Origin: a virus
Strand: one strand, 5' to 3'
Virus record (IMG/VR): IMGVR_UViG_3300030102_006837
Location: 1-21,193 of that record
DNA: 21,193 nucleotides
The notes beneath the pieces are model-generated. The model was given only the letters and a program-made list of their open reading frames with translations. It had not been told where the DNA came from and made no database searches. A program made the position numbers and the translations under genes. Positions 3,288 to 21,193 of the stretch are shown one piece after another. The first letter of the stretch is position 1. Every line of letters begins with the position of its first letter.

Positions 3288-3292
3288 GTCAA
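3264..3292 (-). promoter_or_regulatory. Promoter-like module inside a gene start
   Basis: TTGACA (3287-3292) lies exactly 17 bases from TACATT (3264-3269), with TTAATGC upstream. The spacing fits the other modules, but the start codon of the gene at 3108-3287 falls inside the -35 element, so a transcript from here would lack that start. Confidence 0.4.
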
Positions 3293-3501
3293 GCATTAAT
3301 CAGAGAAAGGTTTGAATTGAGAAGAGGGTGTACCCCGTGAGAGGTTCCATCGAACCAGTGAACATCCGCATACATGTTCTGGGCATAGCAGGATGTCTCG
3401 CTTGTCACGAGGCCCAAGCACTTCTCCGTCTCCCACCTTCCAATGTGAGTGTACTGCACCAAGGAACCGATGCGAACTTTGTTTGCTTCTTCTCTGGTCA
3501 T
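3289..3501 (-). CDS. VGDLV-family SH3-like protein, 70 aa
   Basis: ATG 3501 behind GAGGGAGCGAC. The product carries the family start as VRIGSLVQYTHIG, then LGLVTSE, a Trp strand (ADVHWFDG) and the end LSLINA. The final TGA is inside a TTGACA motif. Family function is unknown; the pattern of short strands suggests a small beta barrel. First gene of a probable two-gene unit behind P10. Confidence 0.8.
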   Translation of the reverse strand: MTREEANKVRIGSLVQYTHIGRWETEKCLGLVTSETSCYAQNMYADVHWFDGTSHGVHPLLNSNLSLINA

Positions 3502-3525
3502 GTCGCTCCCTCACTTTCTGCACTC

Positions 3526-3554
3526 ATTATGCCTGGTGAGGTTGGGATTGTCAA
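3526..3554 (-). promoter_or_regulatory. sigma70-type promoter P10
   Basis: -35 TTGACA (3549-3554), 17-bp spacer, -10 CATAAT (3526-3531), upstream AAAATAATCC, and the leader GCAGAAAGTGAGGGAG. Drives the genes at 3289-3501 and probably 3108-3287. Confidence 0.87.
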
Positions 3555-3565
3555 GGATTATTTTG

Positions 3566-3772
3566 TCATCCGCCAACAACCTTTGGGATGGCCCAACGTC
3601 GACCAACGGTGATTTTGCCCTCTGCACAAAGCTGGTCCACAAAGCCGTTCCAATCCTTGACACGCATGGTGCGGTTGGGCTTTCCACTGCCCCTGCCCCA
3701 CAAGCACTCAACCTCTCGGATGGCTGGGAGATGATATCGCTTCCAAAACTCAAGAGCCTCTGCCTTAGTCAT
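3566..3772 (-). CDS. Small phage-type protein, 68 aa
   Basis: Two adjacent ATGs occur; the second (3772) has the better distance from GAGG. The product begins MTKAEALEFWKRYHLPAIRE, and later has RTMRVKDWNGFVDQLCAEGKI with WAIP near the end. This 'eaL..W...hlP.....R...WN.fvD.L...G.I' pattern recurs in small phage proteins I have seen; no function is known to me. Confidence 0.75.
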   Translation of the reverse strand: MTKAEALEFWKRYHLPAIREVECLWGRGSGKPNRTMRVKDWNGFVDQLCAEGKITVGRRWAIPKVVGG

Positions 3773-3795
3773 CATCTGCCTCGCTTTCTGGAATT

Positions 3796-3824
3796 ATTAT
3801 GGCTGAGTGCTTGTGGGTTGTCAA
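3796..3824 (-). promoter_or_regulatory. sigma70-type promoter P11
   Basis: -35 TTGACA (3819-3824), 17-bp spacer, -10 CATAAT (3796-3801), upstream AAAATAATTC, leader CCAGAAAGCGAGG. Drives the gene at 3566-3772. Confidence 0.88.
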
Positions 3825-3832
3825 GAATTATT

Positions 3833-4348
3833 TTAGTATGCCCCGTCATCTTTCAAGTCACGGGCTGCTTCGTATGCGTTGTCGTAGTCCTCTTCTGACT
3901 TCACGAACCCATCACCACGCAGGACCTCCACAACATTCTCGGGTGTCTCGTTATTACTGTGTGGGATACCATACCCCACAATGATGTCATAGTAGTCATC
4001 GAATGTCAAGCCTGCATGATTCTTTTCATGCCACTCCTGCTCCCATACAGCCTCCCTCTTCGAGATAACATCGAAGACATCCTGCCGAAGGGCGTAGAAT
4101 GCGATAGTCCGAATGACAGTCCGATAGCTTTCAGTCTGCTCAGGGGCCATCTCCCCCAGCACGTTCCAGAGTGCTTCTGGATTCTCTGTGAACCGCATAA
4201 CAGTCTCAGCATCGCCCCACACAGAGGTGTACCTATCTGCTGCATTGCTCACAAGGGAGTCGAGGTCGGTGCCGTTGTCTTTGCTCTCCCACCATGCCTC
4301 GTTTGCAAGCACGGCAATGGTCTGGTCATAGTCTTCGATATAGCTCAT
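3833..4348 (-). CDS. Hypothetical acidic protein, 171 aa
   Basis: ATG 4348 behind GAGGAGGCCAC. The product (MSYIEDYDQTIAVLANEAWW...) is largely helical and acidic, with many Trp and Tyr (SVWGDAETVMRF, AVWEQEWHEKNH, DDYYDIIVGYGI). It ends AARDLKDDGAY, its TAA being the start of the P11 tract. No motif, signal peptide or membrane segment. One of the larger single genes in the left half, function unknown. Confidence 0.8.
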   Translation of the reverse strand: MSYIEDYDQTIAVLANEAWWESKDNGTDLDSLVSNAADRYTSVWGDAETVMRFTENPEALWNVLGEMAPEQTESYRTVIRTIAFYALRQDVFDVISKREAVWEQEWHEKNHAGLTFDDYYDIIVGYGIPHSNNETPENVVEVLRGDGFVKSEEDYDNAYEAARDLKDDGAY

Positions 4349-4372
4349 GTGGCCTCCTCGATTTCTGGATTT

Positions 4373-4401
4373 ACTTTAGCAGGGCTTTCTGGGGGTGTCA
4401 A
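4373..4401 (-). promoter_or_regulatory. sigma70-type promoter P12
   Basis: -35 TTGACA (4396-4401), 17-bp spacer, -10 TAAAGT (4373-4378), upstream AAAATATTC, leader CCAGAAATCGAGGAGG. Drives the gene at 3833-4348. Confidence 0.85.
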
Positions 4402-4553
4402 GAATATTTTGCAATGCTCCTCAACTTTTCTAGAAAGCCTTCCTCTGCGTCAATCCCATGTTCCTCGCCTAAATAGCGGATATACTGCAATGCAAGAATC
4501 AAGACTGCTCGCTGCGACAGCCCTATCTGCATCACCTTGTCGAGAAGAAACAT
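4398..4553 (-). CDS. Hypothetical helical protein, 51 aa
   Basis: I choose ATG 4553 (MFLLDKVMQIGLSQRAVLIL), which follows GAGGAGG at a normal distance and starts two bases after the upstream stop. Upstream ATGs at 4565 and 4610 lie inside the neighbour. The protein is helical (LALQYIRYLGEEHG, EGFLEKLRSIAKYS). Its TGA is part of the TTGACA of P12. Third gene of the operon from P13. Confidence 0.68.
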   Translation of the reverse strand: MFLLDKVMQIGLSQRAVLILALQYIRYLGEEHGIDAEEGFLEKLRSIAKYS

Positions 4554-4554
4554 A

Positions 4555-4800
4555 TCAGACAGCATCCTCCTCGTCAACCCCAAGCTTGCGAACAAACATT
4601 CGCAGACCATCTACTCTCTTTTGAGCATCCTGTAGGTCACGCAGCGCCACTGTCAAGGAAGAAACAATCTGTTCCTCGGAGAGGCAAACCTCGTCTTCCC
4701 CGTTCCCATCGCTGGTAATGTGAGCCCAGCCCCCACATTCGGGTCGATAGCACAGGAACCGGGTGGGCAGCTTCCGCACAGGAATGGTAACGCTGTTCAC
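4555..4800 (-). CDS. Hypothetical protein, 81 aa, GTG start
   Basis: GTG 4800 overlaps the upstream stop as GTGA and follows GGTGAAGG. The N-terminal part has a Cys-containing segment (FLCYRPECGGWAHI, with a later Cys), which might hold a metal. The C-terminal half is a long coiled helix (LTVALRDLQDAQKRVDGL) ending in acidic DEEDAV. Middle gene of a three-gene operon. Confidence 0.72.
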   Translation of the reverse strand: MNSVTIPVRKLPTRFLCYRPECGGWAHITSDGNGEDEVCLSEEQIVSSLTVALRDLQDAQKRVDGLRMFVRKLGVDEEDAV

Positions 4801-5006
4801 GCCTTCACCGGCCCTTCACAGATACCCTGCTCGATGAGAGACATAGCACCCCTGCCGTATGAGCCCTGAAGCTGCCAGACAATACCGGTGTCAATGAGAT
4901 GCTGCCAGGCTGCAATCTGCTCTTCACGCTCTGCGGGAACATTCCCTTCGATAATCATAACTGAATTGACTAGGCTCATCTGCTCTTGGGGCGTTTGAAT
5001 CTTCAT
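4797..5006 (-). CDS. Common small phage protein family, 69 aa
   Basis: ATG 5006 follows GGAGAGCGAC; a longer open frame to 5060 would begin in the promoter and is rejected. The segment AAWQHLIDTGIVWQLQGSYG with R.AMSLIEQGIC matches a small family I recall as extremely frequent in phages ('aWq.LIDtG..W.LQG.fGR.a..LI..G.C'). No biochemical role is known to me. First gene behind P13. Confidence 0.82.
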   Translation of the reverse strand: MKIQTPQEQMSLVNSVMIIEGNVPAEREEQIAAWQHLIDTGIVWQLQGSYGRGAMSLIEQGICEGPVKA

Positions 5007-5031
5007 GTCGCTCTCCGTTGTTTGTGCAATT

Positions 5032-5060
5032 ATTATTACACCGTTCGATGGAGGTGTCAA
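5032..5060 (-). promoter_or_regulatory. sigma70-type promoter P13
   Basis: -35 TTGACA (5055-5060), 17-bp spacer, -10 AATAAT (5032-5037) inside the A/T-rich GTAATAATAATTG, upstream TTTTATCC. The exact -10 register is ambiguous. Drives the operon 5006 to 4398. Confidence 0.8.
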
Positions 5061-5068
5061 GGATAAAA

Positions 5069-5287
5069 TTAAATGTTGTGATACTTTCTAAATTGTTCTG
5101 CAATTTTAGCTAGTTGCGAGTCTATCTCGCCTTTCTCTCTTTCTGTGTTGCCCTCGCAGAGGGGTGCGTCTGTCTCTTCATCCAGACACTCACGCCACTG
5201 CTCTGAGAAGGCAACGAGCATCTCATAGCACAGTTCCTTTGCACGTCGCCTAGGCGTTGTGGCATCCCCGTTGAAGTCTCTAATCAT
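5069..5287 (-). CDS. Hypothetical protein, 72 aa
   Basis: ATG 5287 follows AAGGTGCGCC and overlaps the upstream gene by eight bases; the longer frame to 5368 lacks a ribosome site. The product (MIRDFNGDATTPRRRAKELC...) continues with YEMLVAFSEQWRECLDEETD and a helical tail (DSQLAKIAEQFRKYHN). It looks all-helical; no family recognised. Last gene of the operon from P14. Confidence 0.72.
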   Translation of the reverse strand: MIRDFNGDATTPRRRAKELCYEMLVAFSEQWRECLDEETDAPLCEGNTEREKGEIDSQLAKIAEQFRKYHNI

Positions 5288-5405: not shown

Positions 5406-5406
5406 G

Positions 5407-5692: not shown

Positions 5693-5721
5693 ATATTATC
5701 AAAGCGATTAAAGGTTGTCAA
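5693..5721 (-). promoter_or_regulatory. sigma70-type promoter P14
   Basis: -35 TTGACA (5716-5721), 17-bp spacer, -10 TAATAT (5693-5698), upstream GAAAATAC. The -35 is inside the end of the preceding gene and is translated there as ILDNL. Confidence 0.87.
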
Positions 5722-5932
5722 GTATTTTCTCAGCAATGTGGACAGATATTGTGCTTTGCACGGGCTCGTCTTCTACAGGATTGTGCCAGTGAATCTTCAC
5801 CTTCTCTTCGCCCTTTTCAATGACGGTGCCCACCTGTCGCTTCTTTCTGTATGGCTCTCCTCTTCTTGGGGTCACAAGCGCTCCAACCTCTAGGCTGAGG
5901 TAAGGATTCTTGCTGTATCCTACATGTGGCAT
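5708..5932 (-). CDS. VGDLV-family protein, 74 aa
   Basis: ATG 5932 overlaps the upstream TGA as TGATG. The family motif appears late, as LEVGALVTPRRG, followed by VGTVIEKGEEKVKIHW and HIAEKILDNL. A longer N-terminal arm (MPHVGYSKNPYLS) distinguishes it from the short members. The ILDNL tail is the translated promoter module. Function unknown. Confidence 0.8.
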   Translation of the reverse strand: MPHVGYSKNPYLSLEVGALVTPRRGEPYRKKRQVGTVIEKGEEKVKIHWHNPVEDEPVQSTISVHIAEKILDNL

Positions 5933-6165
5933 CACTCGGTGTCAACCTTAAATTTAGTTTCAATCCAACAGTGTGCCCCACAGCTTAGTGGCTTGTGGGG
6001 ACGATATACTACACGGGCAACCTCTCGACCAGTCTCATCTCGGATAATGGCATCTGAAGTGTACCTATTGTCCTTGTATGTCTTCACCGTTAGGCACGGC
6101 TCATTGGTGTTGTTCTTTCTGTTGCTCTTGATAATGTGCTGATTTACATGGATGATAGTCTTCAT
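5932..6165 (-). CDS. Conserved small phage/mobile-element protein, 77 aa
   Basis: ATG 6165 behind GGAGAG. The product begins MKTIIHVNQHIIKSNRKNN, then EPCLTVKTYKDNRY and YRPHKPLSCGAHCWIET. This 'vIhVNqhvI..N.......P.itVk.y..n.y......y.p.kPL.cGa..WieT' pattern is a family I recall as widespread in phages and mobile elements; its function is not known to me. Its ribosome site abuts a TTGACA motif, so it is probably read through from P16. Confidence 0.83.
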   Translation of the reverse strand: MKTIIHVNQHIIKSNRKNNTNEPCLTVKTYKDNRYTSDAIIRDETGREVARVVYRPHKPLSCGAHCWIETKFKVDTE

Positions 6166-7189: not shown

Positions 7190-7192
7190 GAA

Positions 7193-7393
7193 CTATTTTG
7201 AAAGAAGCACGAGATATTGATGGTCAAGCGGATAGTAACCATGCCCCTGATGGTCAAGCCAGGTAATAAAGGCCTCACGCCCACTCTCTACTATCTCCAT
7301 AACGACTCCATTCGTCATTCCCAGTGGGTGCGTCCACCGGACCAGAGAACCTACCTGGGCATCTATGAACTTGCCTGTGGTTGGGCTTTCCAT
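7193..7393 (-). CDS. VGDLV-family protein, 66 aa
   Basis: ATG 7393 behind GAGGTGAATAT. Family motif AQVGSLVRWTHPLG, then NGVVMEIVESG, a Trp strand (EAFITWLDHQG) and the end QYLVLLSK. A short N-terminal arm (MESPTTGKFID) precedes the motif. Single gene behind P18. Confidence 0.82.
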   Translation of the reverse strand: MESPTTGKFIDAQVGSLVRWTHPLGMTNGVVMEIVESGREAFITWLDHQGHGYYPLDHQYLVLLSK

Positions 7394-9859: not shown

Positions 9860-10057
9860 TTAATTTATTTCTGCTCTGTTGATTACTTTAATACAGTCAC
9901 GTTCGACCCATAATATTCCCCGCCAGTCTGACCAGAGAACGACCACCCAGGAGGCACCGTACTCTTCCTGATACTCTATTGGTTCTATTTCTAGCACAAG
10001 CCCAACAGCGTTGTCAAACAAACTTTGAACTAGGTCTCCTGGGATTATATCTCTCAT
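9860..10057 (-). CDS. VGDLV-family protein, 65 aa
   Basis: ATG 10057 overlaps the preceding TGA as TGATG. Motif IIPGDLVQSLFDN at the very start, AVGLVLEIEP, two Trp-bearing strands (ASWVVVLWSDWRG, ILWVERD) and IKVINRAEIN at the end. Coupled translation with the 242-residue protein upstream is likely; it is the last gene of the operon driven by P21. Confidence 0.82.
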   Translation of the reverse strand: MRDIIPGDLVQSLFDNAVGLVLEIEPIEYQEEYGASWVVVLWSDWRGILWVERDCIKVINRAEIN

Positions 10058-10785
10058 CAAGCTTTCTTGGGAAGCTTGCCCTTCTTGATGTGACGCTCCT
10101 CAACATACATCGGAGTGCTCTTACCTGCAAGAAGAATTTTATAAATGTTCGAATTCTTGGCTGCACTCCTGGGTGTAACTGGGGACACCTGCATAATAAA
10201 CCCCGGCTTGCCAGCGAACTGCTTCATCTGCCATAGACCATCTCGCTGCCTCCATGGAATTAGGTCAATCAAAGGGTTCTCAACAGGCAGCGAGCTACGT
10301 GCTCGAAAGCAAATGAAGTCGCCCACTTCATATCGAGGCTTCGCTTGTTGGGCTGCCCATATCTTAGGGAAATGGTTATTCTGTGTCAAGGTCTTAAAAT
10401 CATCTGGTGTTGGGGTGTGTGCATCATCGTCACCATCAATAAACGCATCTGGCACTACCGAGACAATGATGTGATAATAGCCACTACCCCTATAATATTT
10501 GCAAGCCGCCCTGAAGATATCGGCATTCTTGCCGGGGAAGTTAGTTTTAAACTCCTCTCGGTACTTCACTTCTTCAGGAGAAAACTTGTTATAAATTTCT
10601 CGCATTCTTTCAGAAGCCCAGTAGTAGATACGGTCTTCAACAATACGCTTTTCATAGTCAGTAATAATCCTATCACAACGCGACTGCATACTTGTAGGAA
10701 TAACATGACGAGCAGCCTCTAGTCTGTCAGCTGTAGCATGGAATAGCTTCTTAGGCTCCCAGTTATGAATGTCTTCAGCTGTCAT
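10057..10785 (-). CDS. Two-part protein with C-terminal VGD domain, 242 aa
   Basis: Start at ATG 10785 (MTAEDIHNWEPKKLFHATAD), with AAGGAG ten bases upstream; a longer frame to 10824 overlaps the neighbour more and is not favoured. The N-terminal ~145 residues are helical and charged (SRCDRIITDYEKRIVEDRIY) then strand-rich (YYHIIVSVVPDAF). From about residue 152 the VGD pattern appears: YEVGDFICFRA, PGFIMQVSPV, IYKILLAG, MYVEERHIKKG. It thus looks like a fusion of an unknown domain to the same barrel. Overlaps the zinc-knuckle gene by 11 bases. Confidence 0.75.
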   Translation of the reverse strand: MTAEDIHNWEPKKLFHATADRLEAARHVIPTSMQSRCDRIITDYEKRIVEDRIYYWASERMREIYNKFSPEEVKYREEFKTNFPGKNADIFRAACKYYRGSGYYHIIVSVVPDAFIDGDDDAHTPTPDDFKTLTQNNHFPKIWAAQQAKPRYEVGDFICFRARSSLPVENPLIDLIPWRQRDGLWQMKQFAGKPGFIMQVSPVTPRSAAKNSNIYKILLAGKSTPMYVEERHIKKGKLPKKA

Positions 10786-11607: not shown

Positions 11608-11825
11608 GGAATTTCTTTTAAACAGTCCAAAAAGTTAGAGTCTACGTATATTACTTCACCATTGAGCAGCAGTTTATGCCCAATGACTTTTGGAGAACCA
11701 GGCCTACCATCAAGGCACTGCATCTGCTCACCCAAGTAAACAACGGGCCTACCTAAGTATCGGTTCCTGTTGTCGACTTGTGTATAATCTCCATAGGTGA
11801 TTCTATATAGTTTGCCTACCTCCAT
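11604..11825 (-). CDS. VGDLV-family protein, divergent, 73 aa
   Basis: ATG 11825 shares a base with the upstream TAA (TAATG), with GAGGTGCTC as ribosome site in the neighbour's end; the longer frame to 11885 is rejected. The motif is MEVGKLYRITYGD, so Asp-Leu-Val of the core is changed. It continues YLGRPVVYLGEQMQCLDGRP and HKLLLNGEVIYVDSNFL. Likely the last gene of the array operon. Confidence 0.76.
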   Translation of the reverse strand: MEVGKLYRITYGDYTQVDNRNRYLGRPVVYLGEQMQCLDGRPGSPKVIGHKLLLNGEVIYVDSNFLDCLKEIP

Positions 11826-12022
11826 TAATTGAGCACCTCTAAATCTAGCTGATGGAGCCATTCTTGGCGGGGCGGGCGAGACCACATTACAAGCGCGCCT
11901 TCATAAGCCATGACAATGCCCTCTTCGTCTTCATAGGGAACGTCATCAAGTGACAGGACGATGCCAACATCCAGCTGCATCCTGCAGCTTTCATGCCACG
12001 TTACTAGGCTACCCACCTTCAT
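11825..12022 (-). CDS. VGDLV-family protein, 65 aa
   Basis: ATG 12022 lies within the end of the upstream gene (14-base overlap) behind GGAGGTGGTCA. MKVGSLVTWHESC, then VGIVLSLDDVPYEDEEG, Trp strand GALVMWSRPP and end LDLEVLN. The acidic insert after the second strand is unusual in the set. Confidence 0.84.
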   Translation of the reverse strand: MKVGSLVTWHESCRMQLDVGIVLSLDDVPYEDEEGIVMAYEGALVMWSRPPRQEWLHQLDLEVLN

Positions 12023-12212
12023 TGACCACCTCCAAGTACGGGCGGCTGCAACCTCCGATTCTGTTGCTGTTACTCCAAAGCACCTTGATTAGGTCAACAT
12101 CAGAGTAGACCTGTGTTACCAAGCCAGCGCCGAGCTGCTTGCCTGCGGTGTGCCTCACCAAGTCACCGACTTGAATCTCTTCACTTTTCTTGCGGGATGC
12201 TAGGTGTGTCAT
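12009..12212 (-). CDS. VGDLV-family protein, 67 aa
   Basis: ATG 12212 follows GAGGTAATA, two bases after the upstream stop. A 12-residue arm (MTHLASRKKSEE) precedes IQVGDLVRHTAGK, then AGLVTQVYSD, Trp strand LIKVLWSNSN and end YLEVVNEGG, whose codons overlap the next gene's start in another frame. Confidence 0.85.
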   Translation of the reverse strand: MTHLASRKKSEEIQVGDLVRHTAGKQLGAGLVTQVYSDVDLIKVLWSNSNRIGGCSRPYLEVVNEGG

Positions 12213-12214: not shown

Positions 12215-12439
12215 TTACCTCGCTGCTAGATATCTATTAACTGAGCTAACATGATGCTCGTAGTACCAATTGCCTGCGCCTCTATGTCCTTTGAAGTCAT
12301 CGGCCAATGTGTAAAACCACTTTACTTGATACGTGGCAACGCTGTCAATATCTTTTATTCCTTTAAACTTCTTATCAATGATGATACCCAAGTTCTCTAC
12401 ATTGTGCATGAATACCAAGTCACCTACTTCAAACTTCAC
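12215..12439 (-). CDS. VGDLV-family protein, GTG start, 74 aa
   Basis: GTG 12439 aligns with its paralogs (MKFEVGDLVFMHNVENLGI) and follows GGAGGTTATCA inside the upstream gene; a longer frame to 12529 is rejected. Trp strand TYQVKWFYTLADD, then WYYEHHVSSVNRYLAAR. Eleven-base overlap with the upstream gene. Confidence 0.83.
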   Translation of the reverse strand: MKFEVGDLVFMHNVENLGIIIDKKFKGIKDIDSVATYQVKWFYTLADDFKGHRGAGNWYYEHHVSSVNRYLAAR

Positions 12440-12602
12440 TGATAACCTCCGAACTCCAGGGAGCAACCCAGTGCTCCCAGCCAGGGAACCTGCCATCAAC
12501 AGAGCGAGCAAGACCGCTTCCTCTTCCATTAAGGCGCGTAATGACGGCGATATATTCTACACAGGCGGGGAGCTGCACGCGAACCAAGTCACCTACTTGC
12601 AT
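12429..12602 (-). CDS. VGDLV-family protein, 57 aa
   Basis: ATG 12602 sits in the end of the upstream gene, with GGAGGTGGTCA as ribosome site. Product MQVGDLVRVQLPACVEYIAV, a middle Gly/Arg stretch (RLNGRGSGLARS), then GWEHWVAPWSSEVISEV. Starts with the same 31-base junction repeat as the gene at 13219-13428. Confidence 0.84.
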   Translation of the reverse strand: MQVGDLVRVQLPACVEYIAVITRLNGRGSGLARSVDGRFPGWEHWVAPWSSEVISEV

Positions 12603-12613
12603 TGACCACCTCC
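12583..12613 (-). repeat. Gene-junction repeat copy A (31 bp)
   Basis: A 31-base segment containing GGAGGTGGTCAATGCAAGT and then a GGTGACTTGGT block. It encodes the Shine-Dalgarno, the stop of one VGDLV gene and the MQVGDLV start of the next in overlapping frames. It matches the copy at 13409-13439 with one difference. Confidence 0.85.
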
Positions 12614-12795
12614 AAGTCCTCTTCTAAGAGGCGGCGAGTGCGGCCAATGCCGTGAAGCTTGAGCACATAGACAACGAGACCGGGCTTGCCGCCCTTGACA
12701 GAATGCCGCTCGGTTACAAGACCTACCGTTCCCACGGGGATGCCGCTGATGCTAGCACGAGTAGTTTTGATTAGATCGCCTGGCTGAATGCTCAT
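12589..12795 (-). CDS. VGDLV-family protein, 68 aa
   Basis: ATG 12795 behind GAGGGAGC. MSIQPGDLIKTTRASISG, then VGTVGLVTERHSVKGG, LVVYVLKLHGIGRTRRLL (no Trp here) and the canonical end EEDLEVVNASR. The NASR* codons contain the ATG of the next gene in the other frame. Has its own promoter P22 although it sits in the array. Confidence 0.85.
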   Translation of the reverse strand: MSIQPGDLIKTTRASISGIPVGTVGLVTERHSVKGGKPGLVVYVLKLHGIGRTRRLLEEDLEVVNASR

Positions 12796-12816: not shown

Positions 12817-12845
12817 AGTCTAGCGGAAGGTCCCTGGGAAGTCAA
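12817..12845 (-). promoter_or_regulatory. sigma70-type promoter P22
   Basis: -35 TTGACT (12840-12845), 17-bp spacer, -10 TAGACT (12817-12822), upstream GAATAACTC, leader TCAGAAAGTGAGGGAG. The preceding gene's TGA is inside the -35. Confidence 0.84.
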
Positions 12846-13018
12846 GAGTTATTCTTACTAATCACTTCCAGGGGGAAGTCCGCGTAGTTATCTACGTCTT
12901 CCTTCTCACCATCGCAAAACCACGTTATGGTGTCGGGCTCAGTGATGATGCCGATATACTCTTGGTGCGCTGTCTCCGAATAATACCTTACCAAGTCACC
13001 TACTTCATACTCTCGCAC
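12842..13018 (-). CDS. VGDLV-family protein, GTG start, 58 aa
   Basis: GTG 13018 behind GGAGGTGTTCA. MREYEVGDLVRYYSETAHQE, then YIGIITEPDTITWFCDGEKE and DFPLEVISKNNS. The NNS* end is one frame of the promoter module. The acidic stretch DGEKEDVDNYAD is distinctive. Function unknown. Confidence 0.84.
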   Translation of the reverse strand: MREYEVGDLVRYYSETAHQEYIGIITEPDTITWFCDGEKEDVDNYADFPLEVISKNNS

Positions 13019-13042: not shown

Positions 13043-13071
13043 AGTTTACCAGAAGGCTTTCAGGAAGTCAA
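13043..13071 (-). promoter_or_regulatory. sigma70-type promoter P23
   Basis: -35 TTGACT (13066-13071), 17-bp spacer, -10 TAAACT (13043-13048), upstream AAAGTTC, leader TCAGAAAGTGGAGG. Drives 12842-13018. Confidence 0.83.
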
Positions 13072-13232
13072 GAACTTTCACTGAGCACCTCAAGTTCCCC
13101 CGAAAGATGCTTTTGTCTTCTGGGCTTTTCTCCAGTCCAGCAAACTTCTATCATAGAAGGCATTGTCGGCACACATACTACTATGCCGAACTCTCCCCAT
13201 AGTTTATCTTTTACCAAGTCACCTACTCGCAC
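13068..13232 (-). CDS. VGDLV-family protein, GTG start, 54 aa
   Basis: GTG 13232 lies in the end of the upstream gene (15-base overlap). MRVGDLVKDKLWGEFGIVVC, MIEVCWTGEKPRRQK and ELEVLSESS. The end SESS* resembles the SESR* junction of 16291-16500, but the frame closes in the TTGACT of P23, as if a promoter replaced the next gene's start. Confidence 0.84.
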   Translation of the reverse strand: MRVGDLVKDKLWGEFGIVVCVPTMPSMIEVCWTGEKPRRQKHLSGELEVLSESS

Positions 13233-13428
13233 TTACCAACTCCAAGTCCTTGGGCTGCTTCCATCCGCCCTTGTGGGTAAAGGGATGATGTCCAGGTAGG
13301 TGCTTAACGCGCCACAGGGGTTCACCCCACCTACTCTTGCCGAGGGAGATAAGGATGCCCGTCACCCTTACACCCTGCTTGTGTTCCGTATCGTAGTCGG
13401 TGTATCGTACCAAGTCACCGACTTGCAT
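13219..13428 (-). CDS. VGDLV-family protein, 69 aa
   Basis: ATG 13428 overlaps the upstream gene by 14 bases, ribosome site GGAGGTGGTCA. MQVGDLVRYTDYDTEHKQG, VTGILISLGKSRWGEP, LWRVKHLPGHHPF and the end PKDLELVSASR. Its SASR* end carries the GTG start of the next gene. Confidence 0.85.
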   Translation of the reverse strand: MQVGDLVRYTDYDTEHKQGVRVTGILISLGKSRWGEPLWRVKHLPGHHPFTHKGGWKQPKDLELVSASR

Positions 13429-13439
13429 TGACCACCTCC
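13409..13439 (-). repeat. Gene-junction repeat copy B (31 bp)
   Basis: Second copy of the 31-base junction, GGAGGTGGTCAATGCAAGT followed by the CGGTGACTTGGT block. One base differs from copy A at 12583-12613. It joins the genes 13415-13573 and 13219-13428 in overlapping frames. Confidence 0.85.
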
Positions 13440-13573
13440 TTAACCTGTGCGGGCACCAAGGCCAGAAAGAAACCCCGGCTCGTCATGACGCGACATGTGC
13501 CGCTCTTGTTGATGTTGGTAACCAAAGCCAGCGTACTGCCGTCTGAAAGCCTAACCAAGTCGCCTACTCGCAT
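13415..13573 (-). CDS. VGDLV-family protein, 52 aa
   Basis: ATG 13573 behind GGAGGAAGTG; a longer frame to 13606 would start within the promoter leader and is rejected. MRVGDLVRLSDGSTLALVTN, CRVMTSRGFFLALVP and the end VKEVVNASR. One of the shortest members; the usual Trp strand is replaced by CRVMTS. Confidence 0.84.
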   Translation of the reverse strand: MRVGDLVRLSDGSTLALVTNINKSGTCRVMTSRGFFLALVPAQVKEVVNASR

Positions 13574-13597: not shown

Positions 13598-13626
13598 GGA
13601 TAACAATTAGTTGTACGCTTTGTCAA
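13598..13626 (-). promoter_or_regulatory. sigma70-type promoter P24
   Basis: -35 TTGACA (13621-13626), 17-bp spacer, -10 TTATCC (13598-13603), upstream AAAAGTTC, leader TCAGAAAGTGGAGG. The -10 is poorer than in most modules. Drives the run 13573 to 13068. Confidence 0.78.
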
Positions 13627-13834
13627 GAACTTTTAGGCACTTTGTGAAAAGCCACTCAGAAATATTTGAACCCTCCCAAATAATTTCTGCTTTGTTCCAC
13701 ATACCTGGGTCCTTTACATTCACAACCAAGCCAAGCACATCAGGTTCATCATAATGATATACAATATCGCCTCTTTGTGGTGGCTCCTCGCGCAGAAGAG
13801 CAAGGGCTTCCTTCAGCAATGCATCGTCCATCAT
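13607..13834 (-). CDS. VGDLV-family protein with helical arm, 75 aa
   Basis: ATG 13834 behind GGGGAGGTAAC, right after the upstream stop. The helical arm MMDDALLKEALALLREEP precedes PQRGDIVYHYDEPD, LGLVVNVKDPG, the Trp strand AEIIWEGSN and CLKVLDKAYN. The VLD tail is translated promoter sequence. Overlaps P24. Confidence 0.82.
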   Translation of the reverse strand: MMDDALLKEALALLREEPPQRGDIVYHYDEPDVLGLVVNVKDPGMWNKAEIIWEGSNISEWLFTKCLKVLDKAYN

Positions 13835-13835
13835 G

Positions 13836-14033
13836 TTACCTCCCCACATCCTTTGCAGCAGCAGAGGACGTTACATATTGATACGCTCCCTTGTTAAAAG
13901 CTGGGGCCACGCATCTCGTTCGCCTGATTGTCTCTCGTGCGGAGTCTGTACTTCCGCATTGAAGGCAGGTATCATATCCGATTGCCTTGCGCTTATCTGA
14001 ATAAAAGTCTAAACACTTTTTGCATTGCGCCAT
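13836..14033 (-). CDS. Small zinc-ribbon protein, 65 aa
   Basis: ATG 14033 with AGGAGCCAGAT upstream, inside the end of the neighbour (25-base overlap). CKKC (4-7) and CLQC (23-26) form a likely zinc ribbon around KRKAIGYDT. The tail APAFNKGAYQYVTSSAAAKD with VGR matches a phage zinc-ribbon family I recall ('vaP.NKg.Yq.it......DiGr'). Probably binds nucleic acid or a protein partner; function unproven. Confidence 0.82.
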   Translation of the reverse strand: MAQCKKCLDFYSDKRKAIGYDTCLQCGSTDSARETIRRTRCVAPAFNKGAYQYVTSSAAAKDVGR

Positions 14034-14257: not shown

Positions 14258-14476
14258 TTACTTAGCCGTAGAAATTACTTCTAAGTACATATCCATATTT
14301 CTAAACTTATAGAAAGAGGTCACTCCTATCTCAAACCAGTGAATCTCTGCTATACCTTTTATATTATCGATACTTACAATAATCCCTACTCCGTAGTCTT
14401 TCCACGAGTAGGGATTAGCTAAATCATTCCAAGAAGTTTTATCTTCGCGCAGTAAGTCTCCTACATTATATTTCAT
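14258..14476 (-). CDS. VGDLV-family protein, 72 aa
   Basis: ATG 14476 (MKYNVGDLLREDKTSWNDLA). The middle GVGIIVSIDNIKGIAEIHWF includes the Trp strand, and the end is MYLEVISTAK. No strong ribosome site: the upstream bases are CTAAGAATAG. An insert NPYSWKDY follows the motif. No module-type promoter is upstream; a degenerate TTAATTCTT sits in the preceding gene. Confidence 0.82.
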   Translation of the reverse strand: MKYNVGDLLREDKTSWNDLANPYSWKDYGVGIIVSIDNIKGIAEIHWFEIGVTSFYKFRNMDMYLEVISTAK

Positions 14477-16067: not shown

Positions 16068-16140
16068 TAGGCTCAGTAGGATTCGAACCTACAACCGCCT
16101 GGTTCAGAGCCAGGAACTCTGCCAATTGAGCTATGAGCCT
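16068..16140 (-). tRNA. tRNA-Gln (anticodon CTG)
   Basis: Acceptor AGGCTCA/TGAGCCT, anticodon stem-loop CCTGG-CTCTGAA-CCAGG (anticodon CTG, reads CAG), T-arm GTAGG-TTCGAAT-CCTAC, discriminator A; CCA not encoded. Ten bases separate it from tRNA-Met. Its 5' ten bases also encode the end of the upstream protein gene. Confidence 0.92.
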
Positions 16141-16304
16141 TTAGAGATTACTTCTATTCTATGAGGGGGATATCTGTCAATACTTTCTTTGCTGTCTAGG
16201 TGTACCCAGGATACAATAGTCTCCGTTCTATCTTGCTTAATAATGAGACCAATGTACTCATCATCTAAACACGAAGTATATTTTATTAAATCACCGACTT
16301 TCAC
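16131..16304 (-). CDS. VGDLV-family protein ending in tRNA-Gln, 57 aa
   Basis: GTG 16304 behind AAAGGTGATAA, overlapping the upstream gene by 14 bases. MKVGDLIKYTSCLDDEYIGL, then IIKQDRTETIVSWVHLD and HRIEVISKGS. The last codons GGC TCA TAG lie in the 5' end of tRNA-Gln, so coding and tRNA overlap by ten bases. Processing of the tRNA would cut this message's stop. Confidence 0.83.
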   Translation of the reverse strand: MKVGDLIKYTSCLDDEYIGLIIKQDRTETIVSWVHLDSKESIDRYPPHRIEVISKGS

Positions 16305-16500
16305 TTATCACCTTTAATGATGTTTGGGCGCCATAGGTCTCACTGTAGCGTCGTATCTTATTTCCAAACAGTACATGTATCATTCGATGGTATGGTTCTT
16401 GTTCGACAATACGTATGATTATGCCTATGAGTGGGGCTGCCGGGCCCTCAACACAATCAAACTTGTAGCGACGAACTAAATCACCAACTTTTAATTCCAT
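16291..16500 (-). CDS. VGDLV-family protein, 69 aa
   Basis: ATG 16500 preceded by AGGTGTTTAGTGG. MELKVGDLVRRYKFDCVEG, then LIGIIIRIVEQEP and MIHVLFGNKIRRY in place of the usual Trp strand, ending SLKVISESR. Its SESR* end holds the next GTG start. Behind P28, which also transcribes the tRNAs. Confidence 0.84.
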   Translation of the reverse strand: MELKVGDLVRRYKFDCVEGPAAPLIGIIIRIVEQEPYHRMIHVLFGNKIRRYSETYGAQTSLKVISESR

Positions 16501-17669: not shown

Positions 17670-17735
17670 TCGCCAAACGCAAACAACAAAGCAAAAGAAT
17701 CAAGTGAGACTTCCTTAAAGAGCCCGCCCCCCATC
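17644..17735 (-). other. Long nested inverted repeat (structured RNA)
   Basis: Arms 17720-17735 and 17644-17659 pair over 14 of 16 positions (GATGGGGGGC with GCCCCCCATC at the core). An inner CTCACT/AGTGAG stem (17703-17708 with 17665-17670) is nested inside. The outer 3' arm is followed by ATTTTAT on the minus strand. This could be a terminator, an RNA-processing site or a small structured RNA. Confidence 0.6.
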
Positions 17736-17927
17736 GGGGTAACTGTCTCGCTTTATCCTCCTGAATAAACCGGGACGTAACCAAGGAGAACTTACTCTAC
17801 TTTTTTGCCAATATATTTTAATCATAGTTGGCGCCCTTTTCTCCTTTTTAATATCAGTTACAATCCCAACGTCACAGAAGTGAGAGTTATGGTTAGGTTT
17901 AACTAAATCACCGAGTTTGATTTTCAT
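17715..17927 (-). CDS. VGDLV-family protein, 70 aa
   Basis: ATG 17927 lies six bases after the upstream stop; no clear ribosome site. MKIKLGDLVKPNHNSHFCD, VGIVTDIKKEKRAPT, the Trp strand MIKIYWQKS, then a basic tail (LRPGLFRRIKRDSYP, ending GGRAL). The tail is outside the family consensus, and its last codons form one arm of the inverted repeat at 17644-17735. Confidence 0.8.
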   Translation of the reverse strand: MKIKLGDLVKPNHNSHFCDVGIVTDIKKEKRAPTMIKIYWQKSRVSSPWLRPGLFRRIKRDSYPDGGRAL

Positions 17928-17933: not shown

Positions 17934-18161
17934 TTATTCACTTATTAAGGTAAGACCGTCCGCTGTAAAAAGATTATGAGGATAGAAGATAGTATCAGCA
18001 AAGGGTCTTTGCCAGGCAACTCTAATTATCTGGACACTGGTCTTGGGGCACGGAGTAACATGAGTTATAACTCCCGGCCCAAATCCCTGCAAGTCTGGGT
18101 CTTCAACATGCCTTACGAGACATCCCACCTTCAGACTATCTTGACTTTTTGGCTGGCACAA
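17934..18161 (-). CDS. VGDLV-family protein, TTG start, 75 aa
   Basis: TTG 18161 has GAGGGAG eight bases upstream; a start nearer the motif (CTG 18134) would lack one. After MCQPKSQDS comes LKVGCLVRHVEDPD, GPGVITHVTPCPK, Trp strand IIRVAWQRPF and LTLISE. Overlaps the upstream gene by 26 bases. Cys replaces the Asp of VGD. Confidence 0.78.
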   Translation of the reverse strand: MCQPKSQDSLKVGCLVRHVEDPDLQGFGPGVITHVTPCPKTSVQIIRVAWQRPFADTIFYPHNLFTADGLTLISE

Positions 18162-18438
18162 GTTTGAACTCCCTCATAGGACTACACGGCCCCTTGTCTT
18201 GTTGCCAAGCGACTTTGTACGCCGGACCATCAGACTTCACTTGATTACAATACATTACTATTCTTTTAACTACAACCCCTAAATCTCCAGGTTTCAACTT
18301 TCTCTCATAAAAGCCCGGAGCCACCTTTACCAAATCCCCTATTTCAAATTGATATTCAAAGTCGTCGCACTGAGGGCGTACGTCTGCTGAAGGTCCTAAG
18401 GTATTTGCCCACTCTATTTCCCAATCATTCATTGACAT
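18136..18438 (-). CDS. VGDLV-family protein with acidic arm, 100 aa
   Basis: ATG 18438 (MSMNDWEIEWANTLGPSADV) is preceded by GGGGAAGG and starts after the neighbour's stop; a longer frame to 18570 lies mostly inside that neighbour and is rejected. The arm is followed by YQFEIGDLVKVAPGFYERK, GDLGVVVKRIVMY, Trp strand AYKVAWQQDKG and EFKLVPAKKSR. Confidence 0.8.
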   Translation of the reverse strand: MSMNDWEIEWANTLGPSADVRPQCDDFEYQFEIGDLVKVAPGFYERKLKPGDLGVVVKRIVMYCNQVKSDGPAYKVAWQQDKGPCSPMREFKLVPAKKSR

Positions 18439-18457
18439 GTATAAAGCCTTCCCCTTC

Positions 18458-18898
18458 TTACGAACCACTCGCATAAGGAGCGATATCTTCTTTCCAATGC
18501 CACCCGCATGATTGAAGATCTTGCCAAAAAACTTTGTATCGTGAAGCAGTTTCTCGCTCGCCTTGTTCATTATACCAGCCTATGGGAGCATCCTCAAAGA
18601 CATCCACCACTATACCAAGAGCATTTTCTTTTAAGTTTACGCCAGGGTTAATAGACTTATCCCACTTAACCAAGTCTCCAATTTTAATTTCATTATTAGA
18701 ACTTGCTAAAACCAAAGGAACCATTCCCCCATAAGCCCACAAAGAAGCTAAACTTGTGAGAAAAATTAAATTATTTGCATGGTCCTCTGCCTCTGTATAT
18801 AAAGGAGGATAGAAATAATATAAAGGAACCGCAAGTAAAAATAATACAAATCCACTGATAACAAAAGTTTGCCCTATAAGATTCAGTAGATTCCTCAC
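18458..18898 (-). CDS. Membrane-anchored VGDLV protein, 146 aa, GTG start
   Basis: GTG 18898 behind AGGGG. Two hydrophobic segments (about 11-34, TFVISGFVLFLLAVPLYYFY; and 42-65, LIFLTSLASLWAYGGMVPLV) precede a full VGDLV domain: IKIGDLVKWDKS at about 71-82, ALGIVVDVFED, SRYKVFWQDLQ. The barrel would face one side of the inner membrane. It is the only membrane-fused member. Its ribosome site lies in a hairpin (18907-18926). Confidence 0.82.
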   Translation of the reverse strand: MRNLLNLIGQTFVISGFVLFLLAVPLYYFYPPLYTEAEDHANNLIFLTSLASLWAYGGMVPLVLASSNNEIKIGDLVKWDKSINPGVNLKENALGIVVDVFEDAPIGWYNEQGERETASRYKVFWQDLQSCGWHWKEDIAPYASGS

Positions 18899-18942: not shown

Positions 18943-19167
18943 TTAGTTTTTCACAGAACTTACAACTTTAACACTTTCAGGATGTTCCCAGGTTTGAAAT
19001 CCATAGCGCATCCAGAAGACTAGAACTTGTGGGTCATAAAATGAGCCACCATGTTCCACTTGTTTAATGAGACCGGGGGTGCCGACGCTAAGAGCCATCT
19101 CACCCTCAAAGCTGGCGTCGGTAGCAACAACCAAATCACCAATATTCATTTCTATTTCTTTTATCAT
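18943..19167 (-). CDS. VGDLV-family protein, 74 aa
   Basis: ATG 19167 gives MIKEIEMNIGDLVVATDASF; an internal ATG at 19149 would give the more typical MNIGDLVV start. Neither has a good ribosome site. GTPGLIKQVEHGG, the Trp strand VLVFWMRYGFQTW and ESVKVVSSVKN follow. Contains an acidic-small insert (EGEMALSVG). Function unknown. Confidence 0.8.
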   Translation of the reverse strand: MIKEIEMNIGDLVVATDASFEGEMALSVGTPGLIKQVEHGGSFYDPQVLVFWMRYGFQTWEHPESVKVVSSVKN

Positions 19168-19184
19168 CGTAAATGTAAAGTAGT

Positions 19185-19400
19185 TTAAGTCCGATACTTA
19201 CGCCTGATAATACTACATTCTCCGCCTTCTGTATAAAGGTCTGGTATGTTGGTGTGGACATTATGGCCTGTCCAAGACCTCTCATAGATGAAATAAATTG
19301 GTTCCGTGCCATGTCTCTCCTTCACTTGTTGGTAATCATCGCTAGATTCCCATTCTAGGTCATCCACCGTATATGAAGTTATTATAACATGCTTTTGCAC
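19185..19400 (-). CDS. Hypothetical protein, GTG start, 71 aa
   Basis: GTG 19400 shares a base with the upstream TAG (TAGTG), with GGTGG before it. MQKHVIITSYTVDDLEWESS is followed by a charged YQQVKERHGTEPIYFIYERS and a C-terminal CSIIRRKYRT. Strand-rich. No family recognised; probably translated by coupling to 19400-20404. Confidence 0.73.
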   Translation of the reverse strand: MQKHVIITSYTVDDLEWESSDDYQQVKERHGTEPIYFIYERSWTGHNVHTNIPDLYTEGGECSIIRRKYRT

Positions 19401-20404
19401 TAAGAGCCACCAAAACCTGCAGGGGCGCTCTTACTCCTCTTCATAGAGGGTTTCTTTACGTAAGGAGTGGTATTCTTTGCACCACCCATTCCTATTAGTC
19501 TTTTCTTCATTTTGTTGTGGCGAGCACGGACTTTCCGCTGATACTTCTCTACTTCGCTCAAGACAACCATGTCCTCTTCCTCGACTATACTTATGTTTAA
19601 AATCTTCAGTGGGGTTGCTATTATTTCGTTCCACAGTGAAGTCTTTAATTCACCATCGCATGAATCTATGCTTAAGCAAATGTTTGTATCGGGACCAGGG
19701 TAGTCCAGACGGTGCAAGTTAACAGCACGACGCCCATTGTTGAGAGCCAGCGACTTTACATCACTACGGAAAGCTGCACGAACATTCGCCTCCAGTGTTA
19801 GAATTAAATTTGATTCATCTCTAAAAAATGGGGAAGACATCATTGTAAACGTAGAAACATCAAAGTCTTCTTGATTCTCGATAGAGGATAGAATCTTCTT
19901 TAATCCAAGCTGTGATGTGTAATGTTTAACCTGCCTCACGTTATAATCAGAGCCATAGAACTGCGTGGTGAACACATCATCCACCATTACATATGGTTCA
20001 ATATCTCCTCGCGAAAACAAAAAAGCAAACCTAAGAGCCTCTATGTTAGGAAAATAACTTTGGTATTGGGTACGCAAAGACCAGAAACGATGGTTAATAA
20101 AATCTTCAATAAAGTCTAGAACATTCTTTTCAGTTAGAGAAAACCTCTCAGCCTCTACAGTTAAGAGGTATCCAAAAAAATGATTTATTAGTTTTAGCCA
20201 CTTATCTGATTGCACTGGCTTGGTGGGGTCAACTGTTATCACTCCACCTCTAACTGACATTCCCTCAGCCTGCAGCGCGAGCATTTGATTTACAGCAGAC
20301 TCCCACGTTGCAAGAGTATGAAATTGGTTAGCAGGCCTAACGTAACCGCGTACTTTTACCCTAACTTCTTCGTTAAGGAAGGCCTTCCATTTTTTATTAT
20401 CCAT
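19400..20404 (-). CDS. Hypothetical protein with basic tail, 334 aa
   Basis: ATG 20404 (MDNKKWKAFLNEEVRVKVRG) has no strong ribosome site and follows the upstream stop by seven bases. A helical middle (KWLKLINHFFGYLLTVEAER, NVLDFIEDFINHRFW) is followed by strand-rich segments (SNLILTLEANVRAAF, RRAVNLHRLDYPG, NICLSIDSCDG). The tail is basic, low-complexity (KYQRKVRARHNKMKKRLIG, ending in APAGFGGS). I recognise no domain; the tail suggests nucleic-acid or packaging contact, which is speculative. Confidence 0.78.
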   Translation of the reverse strand: MDNKKWKAFLNEEVRVKVRGYVRPANQFHTLATWESAVNQMLALQAEGMSVRGGVITVDPTKPVQSDKWLKLINHFFGYLLTVEAERFSLTEKNVLDFIEDFINHRFWSLRTQYQSYFPNIEALRFAFLFSRGDIEPYVMVDDVFTTQFYGSDYNVRQVKHYTSQLGLKKILSSIENQEDFDVSTFTMMSSPFFRDESNLILTLEANVRAAFRSDVKSLALNNGRRAVNLHRLDYPGPDTNICLSIDSCDGELKTSLWNEIIATPLKILNISIVEEEDMVVLSEVEKYQRKVRARHNKMKKRLIGMGGAKNTTPYVKKPSMKRSKSAPAGFGGS

Positions 20405-20411
20405 GTTTTAA

Positions 20412-20759
20412 TTAGTCATAAACCTGCTGTTCACCATCTTCAAACGTAATGATGGTCTTGTTTTCCTTGTGAGGTAGAACATGAACCTTTAGAAAATCAT
20501 TTAGAGAATCGAAGATAGCAATTCCGCCTCGTGGTGGAGGATAAAGCCAGTGTATAATAGCCTGCCCAGTAGCAAAGATGGCCCCCTCGATTACGACACC
20601 TGTGCCTGAAACACCTGTCTCATCTGCTTGTCGGCAGACCGTAAATGTCTTAATACCTCTAGGAGCTAAAGGGGGCGGAGGCTTTGGCTTGAGGTCTTCT
20701 TCTTGAGCCTCCTCTTCCGCCTCTGTTGCTAGCTCTTCATCTTCAGAAATAAAAATCAT
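20412..20759 (-). CDS. Small beta protein with TGVSGTGVV motif, 115 aa
   Basis: ATG 20759 behind GGAGAATAAT; a longer frame to 20786 overlaps the neighbour and is rejected. An acidic, then Pro-rich arm (EAEEEAQEEDLKPKPPPP) precedes DETGVSGTGVVIEGAIFATG, AIIHWLYPPPRGGIAIFDS and LKVHVLPHKENKT. The latter half resembles a small family I recall in phages and actinobacteria ('TG.SGtG.V.eG..F.dG..vl.Wl...s......s....vH...g.t'); function unknown. Confidence 0.8.
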   Translation of the reverse strand: MIFISEDEELATEAEEEAQEEDLKPKPPPPLAPRGIKTFTVCRQADETGVSGTGVVIEGAIFATGQAIIHWLYPPPRGGIAIFDSLNDFLKVHVLPHKENKTIITFEDGEQQVYD

Positions 20760-20760
20760 A

Positions 20761-20955
20761 TTATTCTCCACGCGAAACCAAAACAAGCCCCGGCATTGAT
20801 AGAACTTCTCTCAGTTCGTGTTCCAGTTGTCTTATATCTATATCTGTATTCTTTATAACGACTCTGAAGGAACACCCCGAGAGCCTAATCTTTCCAACTT
20901 TGATTGCTGGCTGTATTTCTTTTATTCTTTTTTTTAGTTGCTTCTTGTAATTCAT
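20761..20955 (-). CDS. Hypothetical basic protein, 64 aa
   Basis: ATG 20955 (MNYKKQLKKRIKEIQPAIKV) behind GAGGGACCCG; a longer frame to 20988 extends deeper into the upstream gene, which it already overlaps by 71 bases. Basic N-terminus, strands GKIRLSGCSFRVVIKN, helix IRQLEHELREVLSM and LVLVSRGE. No family recognised. Confidence 0.7.
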   Translation of the reverse strand: MNYKKQLKKRIKEIQPAIKVGKIRLSGCSFRVVIKNTDIDIRQLEHELREVLSMPGLVLVSRGE

Positions 20956-21193
20956 CGGGTCCCTCTGAGATGACTTCCATAATACCACACTTTATTAGTT
21001 CGTCAAGATCTACTTCTACAACCCGCTGCACTTCTTCATTAAATAGTATCAAATCATAATACCATTGCGGGCCAAAGGACCAGTCTCCTCCTTTTATTTC
21101 TAATAACTGTCGTCTTATTATCAAAGCGAAAGAGAATTTATCGCTGGGTATGATTCGGGGAACGCAAGAAAAGAGTGTGCCTATTCTATATTT
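20885..21193 (-). CDS. VGDLV-like protein, 5' end cut by window edge
   Basis: The frame is open from the right edge to TAG at 20885, with 102 residues visible. The visible start KYRIGTLFSCVPRIIPSDKF aligns with the family's '[KR]xxxVGDLV' region, so the true start is probably just outside. FALIIRRQLLEI, the Trp/Tyr strand PQWYYDLILFNEEVQRVVEV and LDELI follow. A later internal TTG (21124) is not needed. The C-terminal tail is Lys-rich (EATKKKNKRN). Confidence 0.68.
   Translation of the reverse strand, partial: KYRIGTLFSCVPRIIPSDKFSFALIIRRQLLEIKGGDWSFGPQWYYDLILFNEEVQRVVEVDLDELIKCGIMEVISEGPDELQEATKKKNKRNTASNQSWKD

What the first reader, a model, noticed from the sequence alone, without database searches (positions are those of the whole stretch)
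3289..21193. Some 26 paralogous VGDLV proteins, a very large single-family expansion
Short proteins with [VI]GDLV near the N-terminus, a G[LI]V strand, a xVxW strand and an LEV[IV] end recur at 3289, 5708, 7193, 9860, 10057 (C-terminal), 11604, 11825, 12009, 12215, 12429, 12589, 12842, 13068, 13219, 13415, 13607, 14009, 14258, 16131, 16291, 17715, 17934, 18136, 18458, 18943 and 20885. Conserved ends with variable middles suggest one barrel scaffold used against many targets, such as host proteins, defence effectors or nucleic acid. I know of no described system with this scale.
Basis: partly seen in the sequence, partly recalled or inferred. Interest (0 to 1): 0.88.

Follow-up and report, generated by a model that had tools for sequence, protein, structure and literature searches.

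The report
Swappable small-protein cassette arrays in phages
A group of uncultured, mostly T4-like viruses of bacteria carries rows of 20 to 35 small genes that share one protein fold and one DNA linker, and related viruses swap individual genes at that linker, which points to a virus-wide pool of interchangeable, probably host-controlling proteins.

Summary
A profile built without the window's sequences finds 22 of the 26 listed proteins, and none in reversed or shuffled controls; 10057, 11604, 14009 and 20885 are not detected. Two divergent members fold as five-strand SH3-like (KOW/Tudor-type) barrels.

The larger finding is how the genes are joined. The conserved "LEV[IV]...SESR" end is not mainly a protein motif: GGAGGTG there is the ribosome-binding site of the next gene, and the last 14 nt overlap the next start (ATGaaaGTcGGTGA), the stop lying inside "VGD". 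In 121 viral contigs (1,411 members, up to 38 in 15 kb), 77% of near adjacent members share this 14-nt overlap, against 3% of other gene pairs.

Near-identical cassettes often have unrelated neighbours in different phages, DNA identity falling from about 0.78 to 0.27 at this ~33-nt junction. Cassettes are no more alike within a genome than between genomes, so arrays look like draws from a shared pool. No integrase or reverse transcriptase was found; RecA/UvsX was in 28 of 29. Interiors are under purifying selection (dN/dS about 0.2). Promoters at array heads suggest early host-takeover or counter-defence proteins; that step is inferred. Cultured phages searched lack the arrays.

The parts
3289..3501 (-). 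family member, lone gene behind its own sigma-70-type promoter
   Evidence: held-out HMM E 2.5e-6; 84% identical orthologue in L122; promoter 3526-3554
5708..5935 (-). family member
   Evidence: held-out HMM E 4.6e-4; orthologue 69%
7193..7393 (-). family member
   Evidence: held-out HMM E 5.6e-5
9860..10060 (-). family member
   Evidence: held-out HMM E 3.2e-9
11825..12022 (-). cassette, overlaps the end of 12009
   Evidence: held-out HMM E 4.1e-9; 68% orthologue in same order
12009..12212 (-). cassette; AlphaFold model m94dce8f2a0e6, pLDDT 85, five-strand SH3-like barrel
   Evidence: held-out HMM E 2.1e-11; structure; Foldseek
12215..12439 (-). cassette, GTG start inside the end of 12429; AlphaFold model mac13e7f61f5e, pLDDT 79, same topology
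   Evidence: held-out HMM E 8.3e-4; structure; 77% orthologue
12429..12602 (-). cassette, starts in the 14-nt overlap with 12589
   Evidence: held-out HMM E 1.8e-7; orthologue 71%
12589..12795 (-). cassette replaced by an unrelated cassette in the close relative, between the same neighbours
   Evidence: held-out HMM E 9e-10; replacement
12583..12612 (-). junction GAGGTGGTCAATGCAAGTAGGTGACTTGGT: RBS + start + stop overlap
   Evidence: exact pattern, 0 expected in shuffles
12817..12845 (-). promoter TTGACT-17-TAGACT at the head of the 12589-11825 run, conserved in the relative up to the swap point
12842..13018 (-). cassette; has its own promoter here but follows directly on an upstream cassette in the relative
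   Evidence: held-out HMM E 1.1e-5
13043..13071 (-). promoter TTGACT-17-TAAACT
13068..13232 (-). cassette absent from the close relative
   Evidence: held-out HMM E 4.7e-11
13213..13242 (-). junction, 2 mismatches to the pattern
13219..13428 (-). cassette absent from the close relative
   Evidence: held-out HMM E 7.1e-11
13409..13438 (-). junction GAGGTGGTCAATGCAAGTCGGTGACTTGGT
   Evidence: exact pattern
13415..13573 (-). cassette absent from the close relative
   Evidence: held-out HMM E 1.2e-6
13607..13849 (-). family member
   Evidence: held-out HMM E 2.6e-5; orthologue 81%
14258..14476 (-). family member
   Evidence: held-out HMM E 3.1e-6; orthologue 81%
16131..16304 (-). cassette beside tRNA-Gln; no close match in the relative (best 39%)
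   Evidence: held-out HMM E 7.4e-10
16285..16314 (-). junction, 2 mismatches
16291..16500 (-). cassette with promoter TTGACT-17-TATTAT at 16516-16544
   Evidence: held-out HMM E 3e-10
17715..17927 (-). family member
   Evidence: held-out HMM E 7.2e-7
17934..18161 (-). family member
   Evidence: held-out HMM E 3.5e-5
18136..18570 (-). family member with a conserved N-terminal extension
   Evidence: held-out HMM E 8.3e-5; orthologues with the same extension
18458..18898 (-). family member with an N-terminal hydrophobic region that reads as two membrane helices (by eye), kept in orthologues
   Evidence: held-out HMM E 4.5e-7; sequences
18943..19167 (-). family member
   Evidence: held-out HMM E 6e-8

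Best explanation
The window is part of an early accessory region of an uncultured T4-like phage that holds tandem arrays of interchangeable gene cassettes. Each cassette encodes one ~60-residue SH3-like (KOW/Tudor-type) barrel. Cassettes are joined head to tail by a ~33-nt junction that does three jobs in one sequence: it encodes the last beta strand of the upstream protein, it supplies the Shine-Dalgarno site of the next gene, and it overlaps the upstream stop with the downstream start by 14 nt. Any two cassettes therefore fit together and stay translationally coupled. Shown: family, fold (predicted), junction, promoter enrichment at array heads, purifying selection, and cassette-wise replacement between phages with boundaries at the junction. 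Inferred: the swapping uses general homologous recombination (UvsX/RecA-type) between junctions during co-infection. Inferred with less certainty: the proteins are made early and bind different host or counter-defence targets through their variable loops, so that cassette exchange refits the phage to new hosts.
For: Family and fold. Junction role of the tail: SESR ends 203 of 617 overlapped members against 17 of 571 without a near downstream member. Swapping: window against close relative; 57 downstream-discordant and 72 upstream-discordant cassette pairs with identity dropping at the junction; next gene differs in 39 of 112 pairs at >=80% identity and 173 of 267 at >=60%, against 6 of 72 and 84 of 269 for other genes; 54 of 113 testable clusters have a discordant next neighbour. 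Pool: pairs >=70% identical are 4 of 10,464 within contigs and 354 of 984,291 between contigs. No tyrosine integrase or RT in 29 contigs, RecA-family in 28. Promoters: 12.7% of array-first genes, 1.8% of internal, 0.6% shuffled. dN/dS about 0.2 in interiors.
Against: No experiment shows expression, recombination or a target. Most loci were fetched with the junction pattern, which inflates the overlap fraction (60% in loci fetched otherwise). Breakpoints at gene ends are partly expected, because discordant pairs were chosen by neighbour. The gene-order control uses crude gene calls. At >=90% identity most neighbours are kept (65 of 79), so swapping is not very fast. Junction identity between different cassettes is not perfect, and ~33 nt is short for general recombination. 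Only 12.7% of array heads have a recognisable promoter.
Confidence: 0.6

Rival explanations
1. Ordinary paralogue expansion: repeated tandem duplication of one ancestral gene inside each phage lineage followed by divergence.
For: All members share one fold and lie in tandem.
Against: Recent duplicates within a contig are rare: 4 pairs at >=70% identity, while 479 of 1,411 cassettes have a >=70% relative in another contig; the per-pair rate is equal within and between contigs. Neighbours are often unrelated.
Confidence: 0.12
2. Selfish or neutral array: the junction alone drives accumulation, and most proteins do little.
For: The junction is self-perpetuating and arrays vary in content.
Against: dN/dS about 0.2 in cassette interiors across 220 orthologue pairs in all identity bands shows selection on the protein.
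Confidence: 0.1
3. Nucleic-acid binders acting on transcription or translation, such as NusG/Spt5-type KOW factors or T4 MotB-like DNA-binding proteins, and not protein-target effectors.
For: Best folds are KOW/NusG/Spt5 and Tudor/PWWP. T4 MotB, an early nonspecific DNA-binding protein that alters H-NS binding, has a predicted KOW domain (PMC7827196).
Against: Near-random loops and no shared basic pattern in the column statistics apart from position 9; SH3-like barrels bind proteins as well as nucleic acids, so fold alone does not decide.
Confidence: 0.3
4. Site-specific cassette system (integron-like, with an undetected recombinase), or diversity-generating retroelement.
For: Array logic and pool-like content resemble integron arrays (compare PMC1382264, abstract seen).
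Against: No Phage_integrase and no RVT_1 match in 29 contigs; the junction has no stable fold beyond shuffles; cassettes carry their start in the junction, unlike attC cassettes.
Confidence: 0.08

Closest known systems
PeSL promoter/stem-loop cassettes of T4-type phages (Arbiol 2010; Comeau 2014, as cited in PMC4503421)
   Same: T4-like phages; accessory genes shuffled between relatives at short repeated sequences; early promoters.
   Different: PeSLs are intergenic promoter plus stem-loop. Here the shared sequence lies inside overlapping coding ends (RBS, start, stop), has no promoter and no stable stem-loop, and joins genes of one fold. Only secondary descriptions of PeSLs could be read; the two primary papers are not held.
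Integron gene-cassette arrays
   Same: Arrays of small promoterless genes in one direction, led by a promoter, drawn from a pool shared between genomes.
   Different: No integrase found, no attC-like fold, one protein family only, cassettes overlap by 14 nt.
T4 MotB (PMC7827196)
   Same: Early protein of a T4-like phage with a predicted KOW (SH3-like) domain and a role in host takeover.
   Different: Single gene, two domains, no array; T4 has no match to this profile.
Small uncharacterised SH3-like phage proteins in BFVD and PHROGs (e.g. phrog_1690, A0A516M7xx block)
   Same: Same fold and size; weak profile matches for a few members.
   Different: No sequence-level membership for most members; whether the phage behind that accession block has an array was not resolved.
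ATGA/TGATG overlapping gene pairs with termination-reinitiation (PMC6728339)
   Same: Stop/start overlap and presumed translational coupling.
   Different: Here the overlap is 14 nt, the same in hundreds of pairs, and includes the conserved VGD codons.

Membership tests
SH3-like barrel (KOW/Tudor type) | five-strand barrel with short 3-10 helix before the last strand | tested here: met
   Two AlphaFold models, pLDDT 85 and 79; Foldseek hits to NusG, Spt5, Tudor, PWWP, chromo barrel, probability up to 1.0, E 0.009 at best
SH3-like barrel (KOW/Tudor type) | significant sequence match to a named Pfam or PDB family | tested here: not met
   Best PDB profile E 0.011; Pfam best E 0.0021, scattered families
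PeSL shuffling cassette | early promoter within the repeated element | tested here: not met
   Promoter before 1.8% of internal genes against 12.7% of array heads
PeSL shuffling cassette | stem-loop within the repeated element | tested here: not met
   Six junctions fold no better than shuffles, z -1.1 to 1.5; terminators not enriched in the window, 10 against 16
Integron array | tyrosine recombinase (IntI) | tested here: not met
   0 of 29 contigs match PF00589; control genomes 14 of 14; several contigs are fragments
Integron array | promoterless cassettes drawn from a pool shared between genomes | tested here: met
Diversity-generating retroelement | reverse transcriptase | tested here: not met
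   0 of 29 contigs match PF00078
Gene accordion / tandem duplication array | recent copies more alike within a genome than between genomes | tested here: not met
   4/10,464 within against 354/984,291 between at >=70% identity
T4-like phage | gp23-type major capsid protein | tested here: met
   24 of 29 array contigs match PF07068; the window itself is a 21-kb fragment and was not tested, but its close relative G001 has it
Known anti-phage defence protein | match to PADLOC-DB | tested here: not met
   0 of 80 members; PADLOC is built for defence systems, so counter-defence proteins are hardly covered
Host-takeover or counter-defence effector | binds or inhibits a host factor | not testable with these tools
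   needs pull-downs or expression tests

The most novel reading that the evidence does not exclude
A phage counterpart of the integron without an integrase: a community-wide pool of interchangeable single-domain effectors whose joining sequence is at once protein end, ribosome-binding site, stop/start overlap and recombination site, so that a T4-like phage can refit its early host-takeover set cassette by cassette.
Probability: 0.5. Interest if true: 0.92.

Novelty: categorically new. Interest (0 to 1): 0.83.

Why it matters
It offers a concrete, testable answer to how phages keep large, fast-changing sets of small early genes: one fold, one universal joint, and exchange of whole genes. It supplies over a thousand small proteins of one fold, kept by selection, as candidates for host-takeover or counter-defence functions. 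The joint itself is a natural standard part for building translated gene arrays. No cultured phage searched here carries such arrays, so a common strategy would have been missed by isolation-based work.

Tried and rejected
Pfam, PHROGs and PADLOC gave no family for most members. tblastn of consensus and real members, and blastn of the junction, found nothing credible among 50,697 phage records, but the queries are short and divergent so sensitivity is low. Profile searches of T4, KVP40, P-SSM2, S-PM2, HTVC008M, RM378, immuto, Mel-JY01, B23 and C48C1 found no match; phiKT1024 gave two weak ones at 0.002 and 0.01, and the uncultured huge-phage record LR756508 one at 0.0014. Membership of 10057, 11604, 14009 and 20885 rejected. 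Integrase, RT and stem-loop explanations rejected. Arms-race diversification inside cassettes not supported: dN/dS about 0.2. Literature searches for the motif or the array returned nothing relevant. The cultured phage behind the A0A516M7xx accession block in BFVD could not be identified.
Full report
Observation. All family genes of the window lie on the minus strand. I aligned the candidates, iterated a profile over ORFs of viral loci, then removed every window sequence and searched the window again. This held-out profile finds 22 ORFs at E<1e-3 and nothing in reversed or 20-fold shuffled ORFs. Four listed members (10057, 11604, 14009, 20885) are not supported by profile-profile comparison either. 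The seed of the iteration came from the window, so the model is held out in content, not in origin.

Fold. AlphaFold with 80 diverse family members gives a five-strand barrel for 12009 (pLDDT 85). The weakest confirmed member, 12215, gives the same order of elements (pLDDT 79). Foldseek ranks NusG and Spt5 KOW, PHF1/PHF19 Tudor, PWWP, chromo-barrel domains and the Lon-protease factor entry 5ycq, and a profile search of PDB sequences lists mostly SH3-like barrels at non-significant E-values. These are SH3-like barrels; no named sequence family claims them.

The joint. Reading the DNA shows that adjacent genes overlap: GAGGTGGTCAATGCAAGTCGGTGACTTGGT encodes ...EVVNASR-stop in one frame and MQVGDLV... 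in the other, with the ribosome-binding site GGAGGTG inside the codons of LEV. The pattern saturates a scan of viral contigs. Across the fetched loci, 617 of 1,276 adjacent family pairs have the stop exactly inside GGTGA. Measured from the start codon, 613 of 792 near pairs overlap by 14 nt, against 16 of 490 other gene pairs. Because most loci were fetched by the pattern, the fair figure is from loci fetched by other proteins: 50 of 84. Tails such as SESR belong to overlapped genes (203 of 617) and are rare otherwise (17 of 571); E and V of LEV fall from 0.86/0.77 to 0.64/0.57. In genes with no near upstream member, codons of VGD still lean to GTC and GGT (0.41 and 0.57 against 0.20 and 0.30 in the rest of the genes), as expected if many once sat in a junction.

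Swapping. In the closest relative (contig 3300021197_001931; AAA+ protein 85% identical), neighbouring cassettes are orthologous at 68-82%, but the slot of 12589 holds an unrelated cassette, and 13415, 13219 and 13068 are missing. DNA similarity runs through the promoter and ribosome-binding site on one side, is lost across the cassette, and resumes at the LEV/ATG junction. Over all loci, cassettes at least 80% identical in two contigs have different next genes in 39 of 112 cases, and at least 60% identical in 173 of 267. The control with other genes gives 6 of 72 and 84 of 269; its gene calls are crude. In 57 downstream and 72 upstream discordant pairs, base identity falls from about 0.78 to 0.27 at the junction, -21 to +12 around the VGD glycine codon. 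Cassettes at least 70% alike are as rare within a contig (4 of 10,464 pairs) as between contigs (354 of 984,291), so arrays look like draws from a common pool. Two phages whose capsid proteins are 68% identical share a single cassette at 88%.

Who carries them. Profile counts per contig reach 35; L033 holds 38 by the more sensitive local search. Of 29 array contigs, 24 have a T4-type gp23. A gp23 tree places 22 array-bearing phages on one side of a branch (92/89) from the isolates nearest by gp23, among them Flavobacterium immuto, Microcystis Mel-JY01 and Rhodothermus RM378; two rows have long branches, so the placement is tentative. None of those isolates has the family. The bacterial-genome scan hits only four MAG contigs, one inside a 2.8-Mb WOR-3 assembly (L160). 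The host and habitat of the window's phage are unknown.

How it most likely works. sigma-70-type promoters sit 40-70 nt before array heads far more often than within arrays and are doubled over chance in the window (59 against 26.7), so the arrays are probably early operons. Translational coupling through the overlap follows from established knowledge of such pairs (PMC6728339). Exchange by general recombination is inferred: 28 of 29 contigs have a RecA-family gene, none a tyrosine integrase or reverse transcriptase. Cassette interiors evolve under dN/dS of about 0.2, so the proteins are kept by selection while change comes by swapping. That the proteins act on varied host or defence targets is the least certain step; T4 MotB, an early protein with a predicted KOW domain that alters H-NS binding, is a precedent (PMC7827196).

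Comparison with the known. PeSLs of T4-type phages also mediate shuffling, but they are intergenic promoter and stem-loop units; the junction here has neither. Integrons share the array logic but not the integrase. Tandem duplication is disfavoured. I therefore call the architecture new as a kind, while the fold and the general idea of modular shuffling are known. Literature searches found no description; subscription papers and preprints are mostly not held, so absence is not proof.

Noticed in passing
window 1-6600, minus strand: Single small genes, many led by AAAATAATYCTTGACA-17-TANNNT directly after the preceding stop codon (11 copies of the 23-nt core in the whole window): repeated promoter modules without terminator-like stem-loops.
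   Followed up: partly
window 7434-9797: AAA+ MoxR-type ATPase (8715-9797) next to a DUF2201 metallopeptidase-like/VWA protein (7434-8711).
   Followed up: partly
window 15533-16140: tRNA-Lys, tRNA-Met and tRNA-Gln genes within the accessory region.
   Followed up: no
window 15216-15503: Possible lipoprotein with acidic DDDDSA repeats after a signal-peptide-like start.
   Followed up: no
window 18458-18898 and L133: An N-terminal hydrophobic segment that looks like two membrane helices fused to the SH3-like domain: a membrane-anchored version.
   Followed up: partly
L034, L065, L041, L114, L136: Family domain fused to a conserved ~90-residue N-terminal domain (MKV..IKK..HF...GYVGSFLANG...DYFAGSFRDN) without a Pfam match for the two examples scanned.
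   Followed up: partly
L160 (CP070664.1, WOR-3 assembly) 6647-7862: Three family genes, two with the 14-nt overlap, in a 2.8-Mb bacterial chromosome assembly: prophage or misassembly.
   Followed up: no
BFVD accessions A0A516M7xx: At least eight small SH3-like structures from one accession block, suggesting one named phage with several such genes; phage not identified.
   Followed up: no
window 10775-11545: Protein with two CCHC zinc-knuckle-like motifs (Pfam below cut-off).
   Followed up: no
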